NCBI RefSeq assembly: GCF_041146795.1
Contig: NC_135176.1
Location: forward strand, 20,495,286 to 20,559,285
Reading direction: 5' to 3'
Length of the DNA: 64,000 nucleotides
Origin: Maylandia zebra
Taxonomy: Eukaryota; Chordata; Actinopteri; Cichliformes; Cichlidae
A model generated the notes under the pieces. It searched no databases. It had not been told where the DNA came from and saw only the letters and a list, made by a program, of their open reading frames with translations. A program made the translations under genes and the position numbers. Below, one piece after another: positions 42,756-51,700 of the stretch (its first letter is position 1; every line of letters begins with the position of its first letter).

Positions 42756-45700
42756 ATGGTCATCCTTCAAAATTACCTGAATGTTTTTTTCTCTCTGTCT
42801 CTGCTGGGCAGCCCGGGTCCTGCTAAAGCAGACGGTAGGAACAACTAAAAAAATGGAAAAAATACAAAAGAGATCACAATTTATTTGATCACAAATCATG
42901 TTTGCGTATTACTTGAAGCCACGGTTCTGTGAAAAAGTCAGCTGATTGTAAAAAAAGTCAAGATTATCTAAAACAAACCTCACGTATATCATGTAGAGCC
43001 ATTAAAGACCACAAGGTGAAAGGTGGAAAAGCATGATGTAATACTGTAGACAGTTTAACTGACTCCAGATTCAGCTCCTGCTGACTAAATAAGTAAAGAA
43101 GAAAAAAATGTTCTTCACACGTTCCTTTTAAAGTGGCCGGGTCTGTAAAAGTGGCTGCAAAACACACTGATGATGATTTCTAAAGCAAAAAGATAATTAC
43201 CCATTAGGGTAATTTTTGACAATGAAAAAAAAAAGAGTTGCAATGAGACTAACAGTTAGGTTTATAAGTGTTTTTTTTCTTTCTTTTTGTGATTGAGCTT
43301 GCGTACACCATCACAGTGCGTTTCAAATCAAACAATCTATGGGTTAAATTCAATGTTAACAAAAGCATTGACTTAACTTTGAGGAATTTTTATACAGTCC
43401 CCCATTTTCAGATGTTCAAAGGTAAGTGGACTCACAGAATTTTAAGGGTTATAAAGGTTGATTTTTTTTTTAGAGCTGTGCCAGCTCTTTTAGATGTTTT
43501 CTATCTTTTGAGTCTAAAGTATGAAAAAGGGCTTCTTGAAGATGTCTCTTGGACTGGTAGATCCACCCAACCCCTCATCGAGTGTTCTTTACTTTGTTAG
43601 ATGTTTTAAGGCTGTTTTTCTTAACCATGGAAATAATTCAATTTTCGTTGCTTTTTGTGGTCTTTCTGGCTTTTTGTTGTTGGTGAGTTGGTTGGTGCAT
43701 GCAAGCTTTGTAAGAATGAGGCAGATTGCTGATTACTACTAAAGTTTTTGCTGTCTCTCTGACCGGGTTGTTTTGCCTTTTCAGCCCAATAATGGAGTTT
43801 CTGTCATGGTCCTGGGCCATGTGGGCCCAGTATTCTTAGTTTCTTGTATTTTTGTATTTCGTTCCTTATTTTAGACCATGTTTTCTGAGTTGCCCTGTTG
43901 TGTTGTTCCCTAAGTGTTTTCCCTTCATGGCTTTTACCCCCTGTGTGCCCCTCTGTGTATCTGTGAGCCCTCGTCTCTCCTTATGTTTTATTCCATGTTT
44001 CCCCAGCCCGTTATGTCTAAATTCTCCCCGTGCTCTCTCTCCCCCCTGTGTGCCCTCTATGTATTTATGAGCCCTCGTCTCCCTTTGTGGTTGTTTCATG
44101 TTTCCCCAGCCCGTTATGTCTGTGTTTTCCCCGTGCTCTCTCTCCTCCTGTCTGAACCTCTGTGCCTGTACCCGTCAGTGTTATGTCACCCCGCCCTGTC
44201 TCGTTATGGTTATCTGTGTCAGCTGTGTTCCCCGTGTGTTCCCACTTTCCTCATTAACCCTCTGTGTATTTCTGTCTGCGTCTTCCTCTGTTCGGCGTCG
44301 CGTTCTCCCTCATGCTGCGTGGATTTCCCTGTGTCTCTCTCAAAGTATTAGTTTATTGTGCCCAGTTTAAGTTTTGTATTTTCTCGTCAGCAATAAAGCT
44401 GCCTTTTGAGTTCATCCCTTGAGTCCGTGAGTTTTGCGATTGGGTCCTCATCCTGCCTGCCACACAGCCGACCATGACAGAAGAACGCGACCACGACATG
44501 GACCCAGCAACTCACAACCCCTCCGCTGAGCTCCGGGAGGATTTAATCTACACGGTGGAATATCACTGTCAGGAGTGGGAAGTGCTACCAGGAGACGAAC
44601 ACCGGGAGGTCGTAGCCGTCCGTCTACAGCGGATGGTGTCCGGACTCCCGTGGCTGTTCGGCGCGCTGCACCCCCACATCCGGGACTTCCTCGTTTCCAC
44701 CGTAGGCATCCGCCCGGAGCTGCCTCTCCAGTGTGAAGAGTCGGAGGACGTTCAGCCCGGTCCGCTGGAGGATTCGCGGTCCGGCTCGTCTCCTCCCCCT
44801 TCCCGGAGAAAACGGCGTTCACGTCGCCGGCGTTCCCGAGCAGCGGAGCAGTTTTCATCCCTGGGTGAGAGTGACTGTGCGTCACACTCTCAGCCCAAGT
44901 TTTCTGGACCCGGACTTCATGACTTTTCCACCACTGTGAGTAACTCTGTTTTGCCCGCCATTGTGTTTCCTGAATCGGATAACTCCACCACTGTGTGTTT
45001 GGACTCTGGAGACACTATACAGCGAGGCACCTCGGTGTCGGATCATTCACCAGTTGCTAGCAACCTTTGTGTTTTTGAGCCCTCTGATTTTTGTAAAGCT
45101 CGCAGTATGTCCTTTGATTTAACCGATATGAATGTGTTACATGTAGAGACAGCTGAACCTAAGACAGCTATCCTACACCAGACTCACCTACACACTGCTA
45201 CCAGCATTGCAGCCCCACAGAACTGTTTTAACCAGCCTGTACACTCTGGGGTTTTCCAGTCTGAACTCAGCCACACACCACCACCATCATCAGCCAAACC
45301 ATCTGAGACTGAGTGTTCTGTAACTGATGCTCCTTCTAGTAACTGTTTCATGTGCCAACCCGTTGTGTCTTTTGACATGTCCAGTGGTGCCCAGTCAGGT
45401 CCACAACCAGTGTTTAATCATTCAGTTTCTCGAGTGAGCGGTAACAAGATGGTCGCTTCCTTTGCTAAGCTAACTGAAAGACTAGGGTTAAGCGTTAAAG
45501 AGTTGCTTGATCAGGTCAAGTTTTGTGACCCACGGCAACGCATGCTTGATCCTGTTCGCTACTCCTCTGAACCTGTTGCTGTGAAAACTGTTGTGGGTGT
45601 TACTTCGTCCCTGGACTGTGTGGCTCCCCATCCAGTTCAATCTGAGTCAGCCTGCCGAGTTGGTTCACCTATGGACTATATGAAAATTGACTTTGTTTCT

Positions 45701-48700
45701 CAACCTGTGTTTGTCCTTCCAGCCTCGATTCTGAAAAGAACTGTCTCTGGCGTTCTTCCTTCTCTGACCTGTGTTAGACAGCACACCGTTCCTCAAGAGA
45801 CAGTTGTTGATGTTGTCTGTTTTGAAACTGCTTCGGTGACTGTCCCTGAGCTAACCTCCTCCAGGACTGCTAGCGCTAACCTGGAGAGTGTTATAGCAGT
45901 GGATTTCCTAGGACCTGCTTGCTTTAAACCTAGATCTCCTAAAACTGAGTTTGGCGTCAATAACTTGGTTTTCCCAGTGTCTGTTGCTGCTCCTGAACTC
46001 TGCTCTCAAACTCCAGTTCCTGTAACCAGGGCAGCGCAGGCCCAGCTTTCCCTTGCTCCCGTATCAGTTCCTCGGGAGAGGGTGGCTGAGGTCCAGCCGG
46101 TCCCTGCTTCTATCCCCAGCCTGGCAGAGGCTCCGTTCATCCCGGCACCCGTACCTGCTCCTCGGGTGGGGTTGATGGACACCCAGCCGTCGCCTGTGCC
46201 TGTTCCGGTTCCCCGGGTGAGGTCAGCCGTGACCCTGCCGACTCCTGCACCCGTCTCAGTTCCTCGGGTGGGAGCGACAGAGGTCCAGCTAGCTCCTACA
46301 CCTACACCGGCCCCCAGGGTTAAGGCAGCCAGAGCCCAGCTCATCCCTGCACCCGTATCTGTTCCTCGGGCGGGGATGGCTGGTGTTCGGCCAGGCCCGG
46401 CTCCCGTTCCCCGGAGGAGAACAGCCAAGAGCCAGTCACCAGCTCAGTCACCAGTTCAACTCCCTGTTGGTCCACCATCTCTGCAATCACCATTGCAACT
46501 TGCACTTCTGTCCATAACGCAGTCAGTAGCACAGTTATTAGCACAGTTTTCTGTTCTGTCACCAGCTCCGTCTCTAGCTCAGTTAGCTCAGTCACCAGCC
46601 GAGTCTATAGCTCAGCAACCCATTCAGACACTGCCAACCTCAACTGAAAGCCTTTGTGAGCTTTCTCCGCCAGCTGAGGACTGCGCGGTGCTGACAAACT
46701 TTGGACAGACTGTTTGCCCTGCACAGCCCCAGCCGTTGCATCCTAAGCCGGCTGCGTGCCCTGTGCCGCTACAGTTAGCGTCCGCTGTGCCAGAGGTCCC
46801 CGCACCTGCTGGCTCTGCATCCGTTTCCGCTGGAGGTTCAGGAGAACCTCTCCAGCACCTTGTCTCCGCTGGCGGCTCTGCTCAGCCCGGCCAGCACCTC
46901 CCTGTCTCCGCTGGAGGATCCGAGGGGCCCGTTCAGCCTCCTGTCTCCGCTGGAGGGTCCGAGGGGCCCGTTCAGCAACCTTCCTCGTCAGCTGGGGGTT
47001 CAGGAGAACCGCACCAGCCTCATGCCACGTCAGCTGGAGGATCCGAGGGGCCCGTTCAGCCTCCTGTCTCCGCTGGAGGGTCCGAGGGGCCCGTTCAGCA
47101 ACCTTCCTCGTCAGCTGGGGGTTCAGGAGAACCGCACCAGCCTCATGCCACGTCAGCTGGAGGGTCCGAGGGGCCCGTTCAGCCTCCTGTCTCCGCTGGA
47201 GGGTCTGAGGGGCCCGTTCAGCAACCTTCCTCGTCAGCTGGGGGTTCAGGAGAACCGCACCAGCCTCATGCCACGTCAGCTGGAGGGTCCGAGGGGCCCG
47301 TTCAGCCTCCTGTCTCCGCTGGAGGGTCCGAGGGGCCCATCCAGCCACCTTCAGCCTCGCCTGGTCCAGCCTCCGAGCCTTCAGCCTCGCCTGGTCCAGC
47401 CTCCGAGCCTTCAGCCTCGCCTGGTCCAGCCTCCGAGCCTTCAGCCTCGCCTGGTCCAGCCTCCGAGCCTTCAGCCTCGCCTGGTCCAGCCTCCGAGCCT
47501 TCAGCCTCGCCTGGTCCAGCCTCCGAGCCTTCGTCAGCTGCAGCAGCCTCCGAGCCTTCGTCAGCTGCAGCAGCCTCCGAGCCTTCGTCAGCTGCAGCAG
47601 CCTCCGAGCCTTCGTCAGCTGCAGCAGCCTCCGAGCCTTCGTCAGCTGCAGCAGCCTCCGAGCCTTCGTCAGCTGCAGCAGCCTCCGAGCCTTCGTCAGC
47701 TGCAGCAGCCTCCGAGCCTTCGTCAGCTGCAGCAGCCTCCGAGCCTTCGTCAGCTGCAGCAGCCTCCGAGCCTTCGTCAGCTGCAGCAGCCTCCGAGCCT
47801 TCGTCAGCTGCAGCAGCCTCCGAGCCTTCGTCAGCTGCAGCAGCCTCCGAGCCTTCGTCAGCTGCAGCAGCCTCTGAGCCTTCGTCAGCTGCAGCAGCCT
47901 CTGAGCCTTCAGCCTCGTCTGTCGCGGCTTCGGCCTGTGCTTCGTCTGGTCCTGTGCCCACCGGGCCATGGCCAGCACGCCTGACACTGGAGAGCCGCCG
48001 CTGCCTTCCGCGCGGCCGGCCCCCTGAACTGCTCCGCCGTCTCCTTCGCCGCCGCCGCTGCCTTCCGCGCGGCCGGCCCCCTGAACTGCTCCGCCGTCTC
48101 CTTCGCCGCCGCCGCTGCCTTCCGCGCGGCCGGCCTCCTGAACTGCTCCGTCTCCTTCGCCGCCGCCGCTGCCTTCCGCACGGCCGGCCTCCGGACCAGC
48201 TCTGCCACCTGTGCCACCCGCCTGGTCGGCCCCCCGACCGTGTGACCCGTGAACTCTTGTGTCTGTGGGCTCTGGGTCGGCCCCCTGAACTTTATATTGA
48301 CTACGGTCATGTGCTCCTGTGTTTTCTGTTGTTTGTTTTGTTTCCCGTTCTGGTCCCTCCGTCCTGGTCCCCCGCCTCCCGCCCTGGGTGGGTTGTTTTC
48401 TGTTTTTGTTTTTGTTTCTCGGGTTTGGGCTGTCAGGAGCCAGCCCTTTAGGGGGGGGTGATGTCATGGTCCTGGGCCATGTGGGCCATGTGGGCCCAGT
48501 ATTCTTAGTTTCTTGTATTTTTGTATTTCGTTCCTTATTTTAGACCATGTTTTCTGAGTTGCCCTGTTGTGTTGTTCCCTAAGTGTTTTCCCTTCATGGC
48601 TTTTACCCCCTGTGTGCCCCTCTGTGTATCTGTGAGCCCTCGTCTCTCCTTATGTTTTATTCCATGTTTCCCCAGCCCGTTATGTCTAAATTCTCCCCGT

Positions 48701-51700
48701 GCTCTCTCTCCCCCCTGTGTGCCCTCTATGTATTTATGAGCCCTCGTCTCCCTTTGTGGTTGTTTCATGTTTCCCCAGCCCGTTATGTCTGTGTTTTCCC
48801 CGTGCTCTCTCTCCTCCTGTCTGAACCTCTGTGCCTGTACCCGTCAGTGTTATGTCACCCCGCCCTGTCTCGTTATGGTTATCTGTGTCAGCTGTGTTCC
48901 CCGTGTGTTCCCACTTTCCTCATTAACCCTCTGTGTATTTCTGTCTGCGTCTTCCTCTGTTCGGCGTCGCGTTCTCCCTCATGCTGCGTGGATTTCCCTG
49001 TGTCTCTCTCAAAGTATTAGTTTATTGTGCCCAGTTTAAGTTTTGTATTTTCTCGTCAGCAATAAAGCTGCCTTTTGAGTTCATCCCTTGAGTCCGTGAG
49101 TTTTGCGATTGGGTCCTCATCCTGCCTGCCACACAGCCGACCATGACAGTTTCACTGAAAAGCCTGGAATAAACTCCACTCTTTTTGCTGCTTAATAACC
49201 AGAGAACAGAACCTCCCTGCCAGTCAATTGTCCAATTAATTATGAACCTCTAAAAATGGGACATTATGCATAAAACAGTTCAAACACTTCAATAATATAG
49301 TAATTATTTAATTCAGATGAAAAATTTTAAACATATTTCGTTTCAACAGACAAACAAACCAAAGAAAAAACCCAACCCTGTTTAAATATGAACATAATTG
49401 AGGTTTCCCAACACACTGCGACAACTCTCAGTTTTAACTAAAACTGAAAAAGGATCAAACTCAATGCAGAAGCTGAATTAAGTGTCTTAATTACTTGAAA
49501 ACCAGACTGTACACACTCCTTTCAGGAATGAAAAATGTTCTTTTTTCATATAATACCCAGCAAAACCAGTTAAGAAGCTCCAAAAGTGATTTGCTTCCAC
49601 AACAATGTATGGTGAAAATCTACCAGTGGATCTATCAACATCCACTGCTCATTTCCAACCAAAATACACAAAGTCTGGACATTGTCCAATGATCAGGAAA
49701 TCCATCCAGAAAGACAGTCTCAAGATCTCATAAATAAATTAGAATACATGATCAATAAACAGCATTCAGTATTGTAATAGGAAAGTTATGTAACGTCCAG
49801 AAGGTTCTGAAGGTAAAACCTTCTCCCTTTGTTCAGATTTCCTGCTGTGGAAGCACTTTTTTATAAAAACGATGTATTTTTCTCTCAGTGCCTAGGTTCA
49901 GTCTATGGGGGGAAGTGGCTAATTTCACTGCAGGATGCAGCCACTGGACACTAAAGCATCAGATCACCATCCCCCCCCTGCAAGAGCTCACAGTCTGCTT
50001 CTACCTGAATCTAGAGAAGGTACTGATGATAAATGTCCTGCAGTTATAACTGGTTTAACTGTCACAGGGATATTTTTAAAGGTGCCGAACAGTTAAAGAA
50101 ATGAAATCTCACTAACTCCAAACATGTCTAGACCATAGGTTCCTCACCGTGGACCGCCTTTATGTACCGACATCCAAAGGCACAGTATGCTGAGCTGGGG
50201 CTGGGGTTTAAGGCGGGTCATTTAGTGGTCTGGTTGTTTGGCGTGGAGTGGAGGACCCAGAAGATCGTCCTCCTTGAGTCACAGTGGTACCCACTATGCC
50301 TGACCTGGTCACATACGAAAGACAGACCTGCCCTATACCTTAAAGGGACCCTGCTGAACCTCACGGCAGGTGGGTTTCCTCTCATCGTGTGTTCTTTAAA
50401 AGCCTAATTTTATTCTGGGATTAGAAATAAAGATTGGTGAAGAAATAAAGATGTTTTTTAGAAATGGCTTTTGGGATCTAGAAGTCTGATCCTCTCAGTT
50501 TTCTCCTGTAACTGATTCTGATTTTCCGACACAGGCTGTCAGGCAATACTGAATGCAGGTGCTCCTTTTCAGTCTATTATCTAAAACTTGTCTGGCTGGA
50601 ACATCTCAATGATTTATATATTGATAACACGGTTGCATCAAGTGATAATCTGCTTACAAAGGTCACTATCAAGAGTTATAGCCATCTTGTGTTTTTGCTC
50701 ATGACGTCTTAAATGAATCTGGGCTACAGCTACATTCCCTGTTTAGAAAATGATATGGAAAACCTGCCTTGGCTGTTTCAGTGATTTTTTTAGTCTTTCC
50801 TTGACCACCTTTTGTATGCCTTCCCTCTCTCACAGTCCTCTATGGAGCTGCTTCTTCTGCCTCCTCTTCGTGCTCCACACTGGCCCCCAATGGATCGCTC
50901 ACTCTGGGATCAGGACATTTCATTGTAAACGGCAACATAAAGATCATTCCTATATCCCGTGTGTCGGGAAAACTCTCTCTGTTTCGGATGTGGGGGAGAG
51001 AACGCAGCAGCAAGGAAGTGGCATCAATGAACTGTACAGAGGGGGATGTTGTGAAGTGGGAGAGAAACAACTGGGACACTCAGATCTGTGCTCCACTACA
51101 AGATTGCAGCCTGAATTGCAGTGAGCATGCAACTTACAAACCCTGAATACTTTCACTTGAAACCTCTGCCGTTATCATCTGATTTTATTTTACTGCAGTA
51201 AATGCCACATTCATCAAGCTTTTTCCAGCCTCAGCGATAGTTTGTTGGCTGTCTGTGGTGTATCCCCTCACATTAAATACTCACCACCTGTCTATTTGGC
51301 AGTTAAGTAAATGTAAAAACAAATTCATAATCAATTAGATGAAAATTTGAAGCATTAATCAAGCAGCTTGTTTCATCTCTACAAAACTGGAACAGTCTAC
51401 AGTTTCAATAAGATGATAAATGTTGACACTTTTACTTGTTAATGATTCTAATTTCTTGGCTACTAAATGCAGGAATTTTATGAAAAAAAAACATTCCAGT
51501 TTTTCTCAGAAATATGGAAGAAGTCAGAACTCATGACCCCCAAAGATTTTTTTCTTTTACTGGCCCTAATCCTCTTTCATAGCACTATAGAGCTTAGTTT
51601 ACATAAGAAAATTCCTTTCACACAGTCTGTTCAGCCATATGAAAAACGCAGTATTAGTTCCACGTGAATCTTTCCCTCTAGCTGAAAGCGCTGCTCCAGT

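What the first reader, a model, noticed from the sequence alone, without database searches (positions are those of the whole stretch)
43802..49148. Very young LTR retroelement with no visible pol and one giant repeat-built ORF
Direct: matching TG...CA LTRs that differ, as far as I could see, only by one 9-bp tandem unit, a perfect GTTTC target duplication, an abutting polypurine tract, and a single 1,325-codon ORF filling the interior. Established: gypsy-type elements normally encode gag-pol with RT and integrase. Inference: this is a recently mobile non-autonomous family in which coding space was replaced by, or evolved into, a low-complexity protein. An intact ORF in a parasite-dependent element suggests the protein may matter for packaging or mobilisation.
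Basis: partly seen in the sequence, partly recalled or inferred. Interest (0 to 1): 0.75.

Follow-up and report, generated by a model that had tools for sequence, protein, structure and literature searches.

The report
Self-primed hitchhiking retroelement with own protein
A very young jumping element in a cichlid fish lacks the usual genes for copying itself and appears to start copying from its own RNA, yet it belongs to a large family that keeps an uncharacterised protein of its own working.

Summary
Two LTRs (43802-44479, 48462-49148) differ by no substitution and one 9-nt unit and are flanked by GTTTC. A 1,325-codon ORF begins in the last 6 nt of the 5' LTR and ends in the polypurine tract. 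No gag, protease or RT was found. It is one copy of a large cichlid family: 87 exact LTR/PBS junctions and 552 tract matches in the genome, none for the reversed patterns.

(1) The PBS pairs with an LTR decamer (44297-44306). Copies with a different decamer have a correspondingly different PBS: three types plus one variant. This indicates Tf1/sushi-type self-priming. (2) The N-terminus is not low-complexity. It is a small predicted helical domain under purifying selection: dN/dS 0.06-0.50 between diverged type-A copies, 0.8-2.4 in control frames. It has no Pfam match and no convincing PDB match; some copies carry an unrelated domain instead.

Best reading: a trans-mobilised Tf1/sushi-type element that encodes its own selected, non-Gag accessory protein. 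Helper and protein activity remain unidentified.

The parts
43797..43801 (.). target-site duplication, left copy (GTTTC)
43802..44479 (+). 5' LTR, 678 nt, TGTCATGG...CATGACA
44297..44306 (+). decamer GTCGCGTTCT, predicted RNA 5' end that serves as self-primer
   Evidence: complementary to the PBS and changing together with it; the transcription start itself is inferred
44392..44397 (+). AATAAA polyadenylation signal in the 5' LTR
44474..48451 (+). single ORF, 1,325 codons
44482..44491 (+). primer-binding site AGAACGCGAC, complementary to 44297-44306
44498..44509 (+). ATGGACCCAGCA (MDPA), the position at which many gag ORFs of sushi elements in the same genome start (MDSA/MDPA)
44525..44716 (+). 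N-terminal domain (residues 18-81), predicted helical, under purifying selection
44804..44833 (+). basic stretch [10 protein letters not shown] (residues 111-120)
   Evidence: read; similar basic stretches in P0002-P0005 and P0012 and L098
46784..48218 (+). tandem repeat part of the ORF: 123-, 30-, 27- and 57-nt units
48450..48458 (+). polypurine tract AGGGGGGGG
   Evidence: context found 552 times in the genome with up to 2 mismatches, 0 for the reversed pattern
48462..49148 (+). 3' LTR, 687 nt
49149..49153 (.). target-site duplication, right copy (GTTTC)

Best explanation
A recently inserted copy of a non-autonomous LTR retrotransposon family of Tf1/sushi layout in cichlid fish. RNA starting near 44297 folds its own 5' end onto the PBS at 44482-44491, and reverse transcription starts from the RNA itself (inferred from pairing and co-change). 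Gag, RT and integrase must come in trans, most simply from a gag-pol sushi element of the same genome (inferred; helper not identified). The same RNA encodes one long protein: a small helical N-terminal domain, a basic stretch and a long repeat tail. The N-terminal domain has been kept by purifying selection between diverged copies (shown). A parasite's protein can be kept only if it helps mainly the RNA that encodes it (inferred). Most likely it binds that RNA and brings it into, or replaces part of, the helper's Gag particle (inferred; about 0.35 for this step alone). Whole N-terminal modules differ between copies with similar LTRs, probably through template switching between co-packaged RNAs (inferred).
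For: LTR identity, target duplication and ORF. No Pfam family in the ORF and no gag, protease or RT by tblastn in 26 family sequences, positive controls found. PBS/LTR pairing of 10 or more bases in 18 of 21 elements, with three matching decamer types plus a one-base variant; the same layout in gag-bearing sushi copies of this genome (4 of 4, 7 of 20). LTR ends fit the published sushi motif (passage). dN/dS 0.06-0.50 for type-A pairs with dS of 0.2 or more, controls 0.8-2.4; 0.20 for type C and 0.22 for type D. Two N-terminal domains without detectable relation on one leader. Family size.
Against: No helper with a shared LTR was found (20 gag loci). PBS pairing is only 9 bases in L014 and L019 and 7 in L013, and by itself a 10-base match arises in 46 of 5,000 shuffles. 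13 of 20 gag loci did not show pairing of 10 bases in my scan. Over 150 codons, and between domain types, dN/dS is higher and often not significant. Five of the eleven complete copies have an interrupted ORF. Type E copies lack the domain, and only 3 of 8 are open over 600 nt. No transcript, protein or transposition data exist here. Nothing tests RNA binding.
Confidence: 0.68

Rival explanations
1. The ORF is a highly diverged or truncated sushi Gag, so this is a TR-GAG-like element: an LTR element that keeps only Gag and moves with a helper's Pol.
For: The ORF starts where sushi gags start (MDPA/MDSA, some from an ATG at the LTR end). It is the only ORF, has basic stretches, and small helical domains are common in Gag.
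Against: No DUF4939 or other gag family in the ORF; profile comparison with 19 sushi gag N-termini gives probability 1.4 percent for the A/B/D domain and 2.3 percent for type C. No PDB fold match, but that is inconclusive.
Confidence: 0.2
2. The ORF is open only because the family is young and G+C-rich; the protein has no function now and the constraint is left over from an earlier coding life.
For: The repeat part is G+C-rich and other frames are long there too (574 codons on the - strand, 374 in another + frame). Five of eleven complete copies are interrupted. Close copies show little or no signal of constraint.
Against: In the non-repetitive 768 codons the other frames have 34 and 52 stops and the coding frame none. 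Diverged copies inside the pol-less family show dN/dS near 0.2 in types A, C and D.
Confidence: 0.12
3. The N-terminal domain is a host gene captured by the element, and its conservation reflects the host gene rather than the element.
For: Database proteins of this family are annotated as host genes (FLO11-like, proline-rich protein 36-like).
Against: All 17 proteins found in three searches carry a cichlid name in the ncbi source and look like copies of this element family; no ancestral gene outside cichlids appeared, though the searches were word-based and capped, and three of the rows also bear a ferret label in nr.
Confidence: 0.05

Closest known systems
Tf1/sushi group of Ty3/gypsy LTR retrotransposons
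   Same: LTR end motif, 5-nt target duplication, self-complementary PBS right behind the LTR, start codon right behind the PBS or at the LTR end.
   Different: Sushi elements encode gag-pol; this family has neither.
TR-GAG elements of plants (PMC8704663, passages; original description by Chaparro et al. 2015 seen only as a reference)
   Same: Non-autonomous LTR element with a single ORF, mobilised with proteins of others.
   Different: Their ORF is Gag; here the ORF has no detectable Gag domain, and N-terminal modules differ between copies.
LARD and TRIM elements (listings; LARD definition recalled)
   Same: LTRs, PBS and PPT without gag-pol.
   Different: They are described as non-coding; here an ORF is kept by selection.
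LTR retrotransposons of bdelloid rotifers with captured ORF3 (PMC5408684, passages)
   Same: Exchange of accessory ORFs between elements.
   Different: They keep gag and pol, and several of their extra ORFs resemble known enzymes or envelope proteins.
BHIKHARI and crestin of zebrafish (PMC10996621, passages)
   Same: Young fish LTR elements whose protein is annotated as a gene.
   Different: Retroviral Gag of the lokiretrovirus clade; not related by anything seen here.

Membership tests
LTR retrotransposon | two LTRs with TG...CA ends, target duplication, PBS and PPT | tested here: met
LTR retrotransposon | gag-pol coding capacity (autonomous element) | tested here: not met
   none found in the window copy or in 25 other family sequences
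Tf1/sushi group | PBS complementary to the RNA 5' end instead of to a tRNA | tested here: met
   pairing and co-change; the RNA 5' end itself was not measured
Tf1/sushi group | LTR end motif TGTYANR...CNTNACA (PMC3601003 Table 3, passage) | tested here: met
   TGTCATG...CATGACA; a short motif
Tf1/sushi group | RT and integrase that group with the sushi clade | tested here: not met
   no RT found; phylogenetic membership therefore cannot be assigned, only the layout
TR-GAG | single ORF with a Gag domain | tested here: not met
   no gag family in Pfam, profile comparison 1.4 percent; a very diverged Gag is not excluded
LARD / TRIM | interior without a maintained coding gene | tested here: not met
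   purifying selection
any fold in the PDB | structural match of the N-terminal domain | tested here: inconclusive
described repeat family | entry in Repbase or Dfam | not testable with these tools
   neither library is held

The most novel reading that the evidence does not exclude
A class of non-autonomous retroelement that is a protein-coding parasite of other retroelements: it has discarded every canonical gene and lives by a dedicated, exchangeable, non-Gag protein that makes foreign particles carry its own RNA, with a self-primer whose sequence can be replaced as a whole because the PBS is copied from it in each round.
Probability: 0.35. Interest if true: 0.82.

Novelty: new variant of a known kind. 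Interest (0 to 1): 0.62.

Why it matters
Non-autonomous LTR elements are usually seen as cis-signals without genes, or as Gag-only elements. Here selection has kept a non-Gag protein in elements without gag-pol, which implies that the protein helps the very RNA that encodes it. Young, diverse copies and primer/PBS pairs that change together make both self-priming in vertebrates and the rules of parasitism between retroelements testable. The proteins are also deposited as fish genes under misleading names, so the family affects gene annotation.

Tried and rejected
L022 (its LTR is 98.5% like ours over 338 nt, with PNMA-type gag and RT behind it) looked like the autonomous partner. It is another LTR element inserted into an LTR of our family: the rest of our LTR reappears behind it in L097. 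The 9.7-kb LTR pair on C1 (L017, L018) is long because an element with 987-nt LTRs sits inside it. L026 has an RT piece about 3.4 kb from its LTR, but the LTR has neither PBS nor PPT beside it and no perfect target duplication; I read the RT as a neighbour, without proof.

Weak Pfam hits (FXR_C1, TetR_C_6) were below their cut-offs and dropped. Codon-position counts over 600-nt alignments were mostly inconclusive because the copies are mosaics. NG86 over the first 150 codons gave ratios of 0.31-0.85 for diverged pairs and 1.84 for one close pair, with alignments that cross unrelated modules; I then used the domain only. In one search three of ten copies fell out and the rows of WIN and L068 were cut to 36 codons by my own pattern; redid type A with ten copies. 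Gap lengths between interiors were multiples of three in 6 of 7 to 6 of 14 cases per pair, but the repeat units are themselves multiples of three, so I do not use this as evidence. A fold relative was not found.

The helper search covered 20 of 150 scored gag places, about 900 nt upstream of each, plus L039-L042. Ten paper searches (one search had no result) listed no paper that I recognised as describing this family. I saw titles and abstract starts only, apart from passages of PMC4600332, PMC3601003 (and its section on sushi), PMC11753138, PMC10996621, PMC5408684 and PMC8704663. This does not show that the family is undescribed.
Full report
WHAT IS THERE. The element runs from 43802 to 49148. 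Its LTRs (678 and 687 nt) align with no mismatch and one 9-nt gap and are flanked by GTTTC. With a germline rate of about 3.5e-9 per site and generation (recalled), zero changes in 678 aligned sites bound the age at roughly 0.6 million generations, an order-of-magnitude statement. The single ORF spans 44474-48451. It is far longer than in shuffles (1,325 codons against a maximum of 436 in 500), and its non-repetitive 768 codons have no stop in frame 0 but 34 and 52 in the other two frames. Repeat units in the ORF are 123, 30, 27 and 57 nt.

HOST AND FAMILY. The window lies in a 962-Mb genome. All 17 proteins found in three searches carry a cichlid name in the ncbi source: Astatotilapia, Maylandia, Haplochromis, Simochromis, Oreochromis, Sarotherodon. 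Three of them (P0007-P0009) also bear a ferret label in nr. The searches share exact words and two of the three were capped at about 8,000 candidates, so relatives elsewhere are not excluded. I take the host to be a cichlid, probably near Astatotilapia (P0001 is 100% identical over 42% of the query). The LTR search had 1,254 first-look candidates, of which 40 were scored. The exact LTR/PBS junction occurs 87 times, 0 for the reversed pattern. I read 67 of these 87 places: 54 as 600-nt stretches and 13 within other loci; the other 20 are places that matched the 5' part of the ORF. The tract context occurs 552 times with up to 2 mismatches, 0 reversed (only the first 100 places were listed). Eleven complete LTR pairs, the window's included, have 0-2 mismatches between their LTRs and interiors of 2.1-4.0 kb. 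In six of the eleven a long frame runs on to the tract (WIN, L009, L015, L020, L021, and L012 from a displaced start); in the other five it is interrupted. Single LTRs with target duplications also occur (L023, L025, L027).

NO CANONICAL GENES. Pfam finds no family in the ORF. Tblastn with a sushi gag, a sushi protease region and an RT finds nothing at E 0.001 in 26 family sequences (24 copies), while the control loci are found. The 68 five-prime ends that I classified by their translation all fall into the types below, none of them a gag.

SELF-PRIMING. The ten bases 44297-44306 are complementary to 44482-44491, which begin at the third base of the interior. Of 21 distinct elements with the PBS next to the LTR, 18 pair over at least 10 bases, 2 over 9 (L014, L019) and 1 over 7 (L013); L012 is excluded because extra DNA separates LTR and PBS. 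In shuffled LTRs 46 of 5,000 reach 10 bases, so a single copy proves little. The strong evidence is co-change. Five copies (L031, L032, L036, L037, L038) carry a different PBS and exactly the matching LTR decamer. L033 has one further base changed on each side, matching. L030 has the first decamer and the first PBS on an LTR that otherwise resembles the second type. L098, a diverged subfamily with identical 578-nt LTRs and target duplication GTTTT, has a third decamer and a third PBS, while the LTR on both sides of the decamer is nearly that of the window. Gag-bearing sushi copies of this genome show the same arrangement with 11 bases (4 of 4), and 7 of 20 further gag loci pair over 10-11 bases; the other 13 did not reach 10 in this simple scan. 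Tf1-type priming copies the primer back into the PBS in each round (recalled), which would produce such co-change. Self-priming was shown for Tf1 and has been implicated in vertebrates (PMC4600332, passages). The LTR ends fit the sushi motif of PMC3601003 (passage).

THE PROTEIN. It begins MTEERD..MDPA, at the place where many sushi gags of this genome begin MDSA/MDPA; four of the 20 gag loci begin MTER..DSAD from an ATG at the LTR end, as here (L109, L111, L115, L119). Of 68 copies 18 are type A (as in the window), 14 A', 17 B, 4 D, 7 C and 8 E; 51 of 68 are open over the first 600 nt: A 11 of 18, A' 12 of 14, B 16 of 17, C 5 of 7, D 4 of 4, E 3 of 8. A, A', B and D are versions of one domain; T27, V28, C32, W35, E45, V55, P59, W60, L61, L65, P67, D71, L73 and P81 are invariant in the nine sequences. 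L098 carries a further version. Type C carries a domain without detectable relation: profile comparison aligns only the shared leader. Type E starts at MDPA in another frame and lacks the domain. In types B and C the leader is followed by a second start-like M(S/P)D.A, as if a module with its own start had been joined in frame behind it (inference).

SELECTION. Over 73 codons of type A/A', WIN-L009 has 18.0 synonymous changes per 55 sites and 12.0 non-synonymous per 164 (ratio 0.18, p 1.2e-5); WIN-L057 gives 0.17, L009-L012 0.19, WIN-L068 0.06. WIN-L015 is weaker (0.50, p 0.058). Three pairs read in the two shifted frames give 0.81-2.35, none significant. Type C L016-L050 gives 0.20 (p 2e-8), type D L020-L085 0.22 (p 1e-5), type B L011-L044 0.15 (p 0.007). 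Comparisons of A with B or D, partly over only 36 codons, give 0.29-1.07, several not significant. Over the first 150 codons the ratios are higher, 0.31-0.85 for diverged pairs. Pairs share ancestry, so the tests are not independent. Very close pairs show few changes and no clear signal.

HOW IT MOST LIKELY WORKS. Shown: anatomy, youth, no canonical genes found, pairing and co-change of primer and PBS, purifying selection on the N-terminal domain, different modules on one leader. Inferred: transcription start near 44297, mobilisation by a sushi-type helper, cis action of the protein, and delivery of its RNA to foreign Gag. The helper was not found: none of 20 gag loci showed LTR similarity at E 0.001, out of 150 scored gag places, and the LTR search scored only 40 candidates.

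NOVELTY. The parts are known kinds: LTR element, Tf1/sushi-type priming, trans-mobilisation, accessory ORFs. The combination, vertebrate elements without gag-pol that keep and diversify their own non-Gag protein, matched no paper that I recognised in ten searches (listed in Tried and rejected). Repbase and Dfam could not be consulted, so prior cataloguing is quite possible.

Noticed in passing
L022:5338-10000 and L097:1-2876: A different LTR element with a PNMA-type gag (Pfam E 6e-23) and RT (E 6e-41) inserted into an LTR of this family.
   Followed up: partly
L017:3150-5001 and L018:1-4625: An element with 987-nt LTRs (99.4% identical) inserted into the C1 copy of this family; neither gag, protease nor RT was found in it by the queries used.
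   Followed up: partly
L012:890-1180: About 280 nt of sequence that also follows the 3' LTR lies between the first LTR and the interior, perhaps from recombination between LTRs or copies.
   Followed up: no
P0014 (Haplochromis burtoni): A gene model that joins the type C-like N-terminus of this family to GTPase domains (PF04548, PF01926, PF00350); element insertion next to a host gene or an annotation fusion.
   Followed up: no
P0007, P0008, P0009: Oreochromis proteins of this family that also carry a ferret (Mustela putorius) label in nr, which looks like mislabelled or contaminating records.
   Followed up: no
window:43988-44045 and 44091-44148: A 58-nt stretch of the LTR occurs twice, 103 nt apart, 88% alike, in both LTRs.
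   Followed up: no
window:48000-48300: The C-terminal part repeats GRPPE/GRPPD, also in P0002-P0004, P0012 and L098; it recalls an AT-hook core (recalled, not tested).
   Followed up: no
L026:8657-9313: A piece of RT on the strand of a nearby LTR of this family, about 3.4 kb from it; read as an unrelated neighbour.
   Followed up: partly
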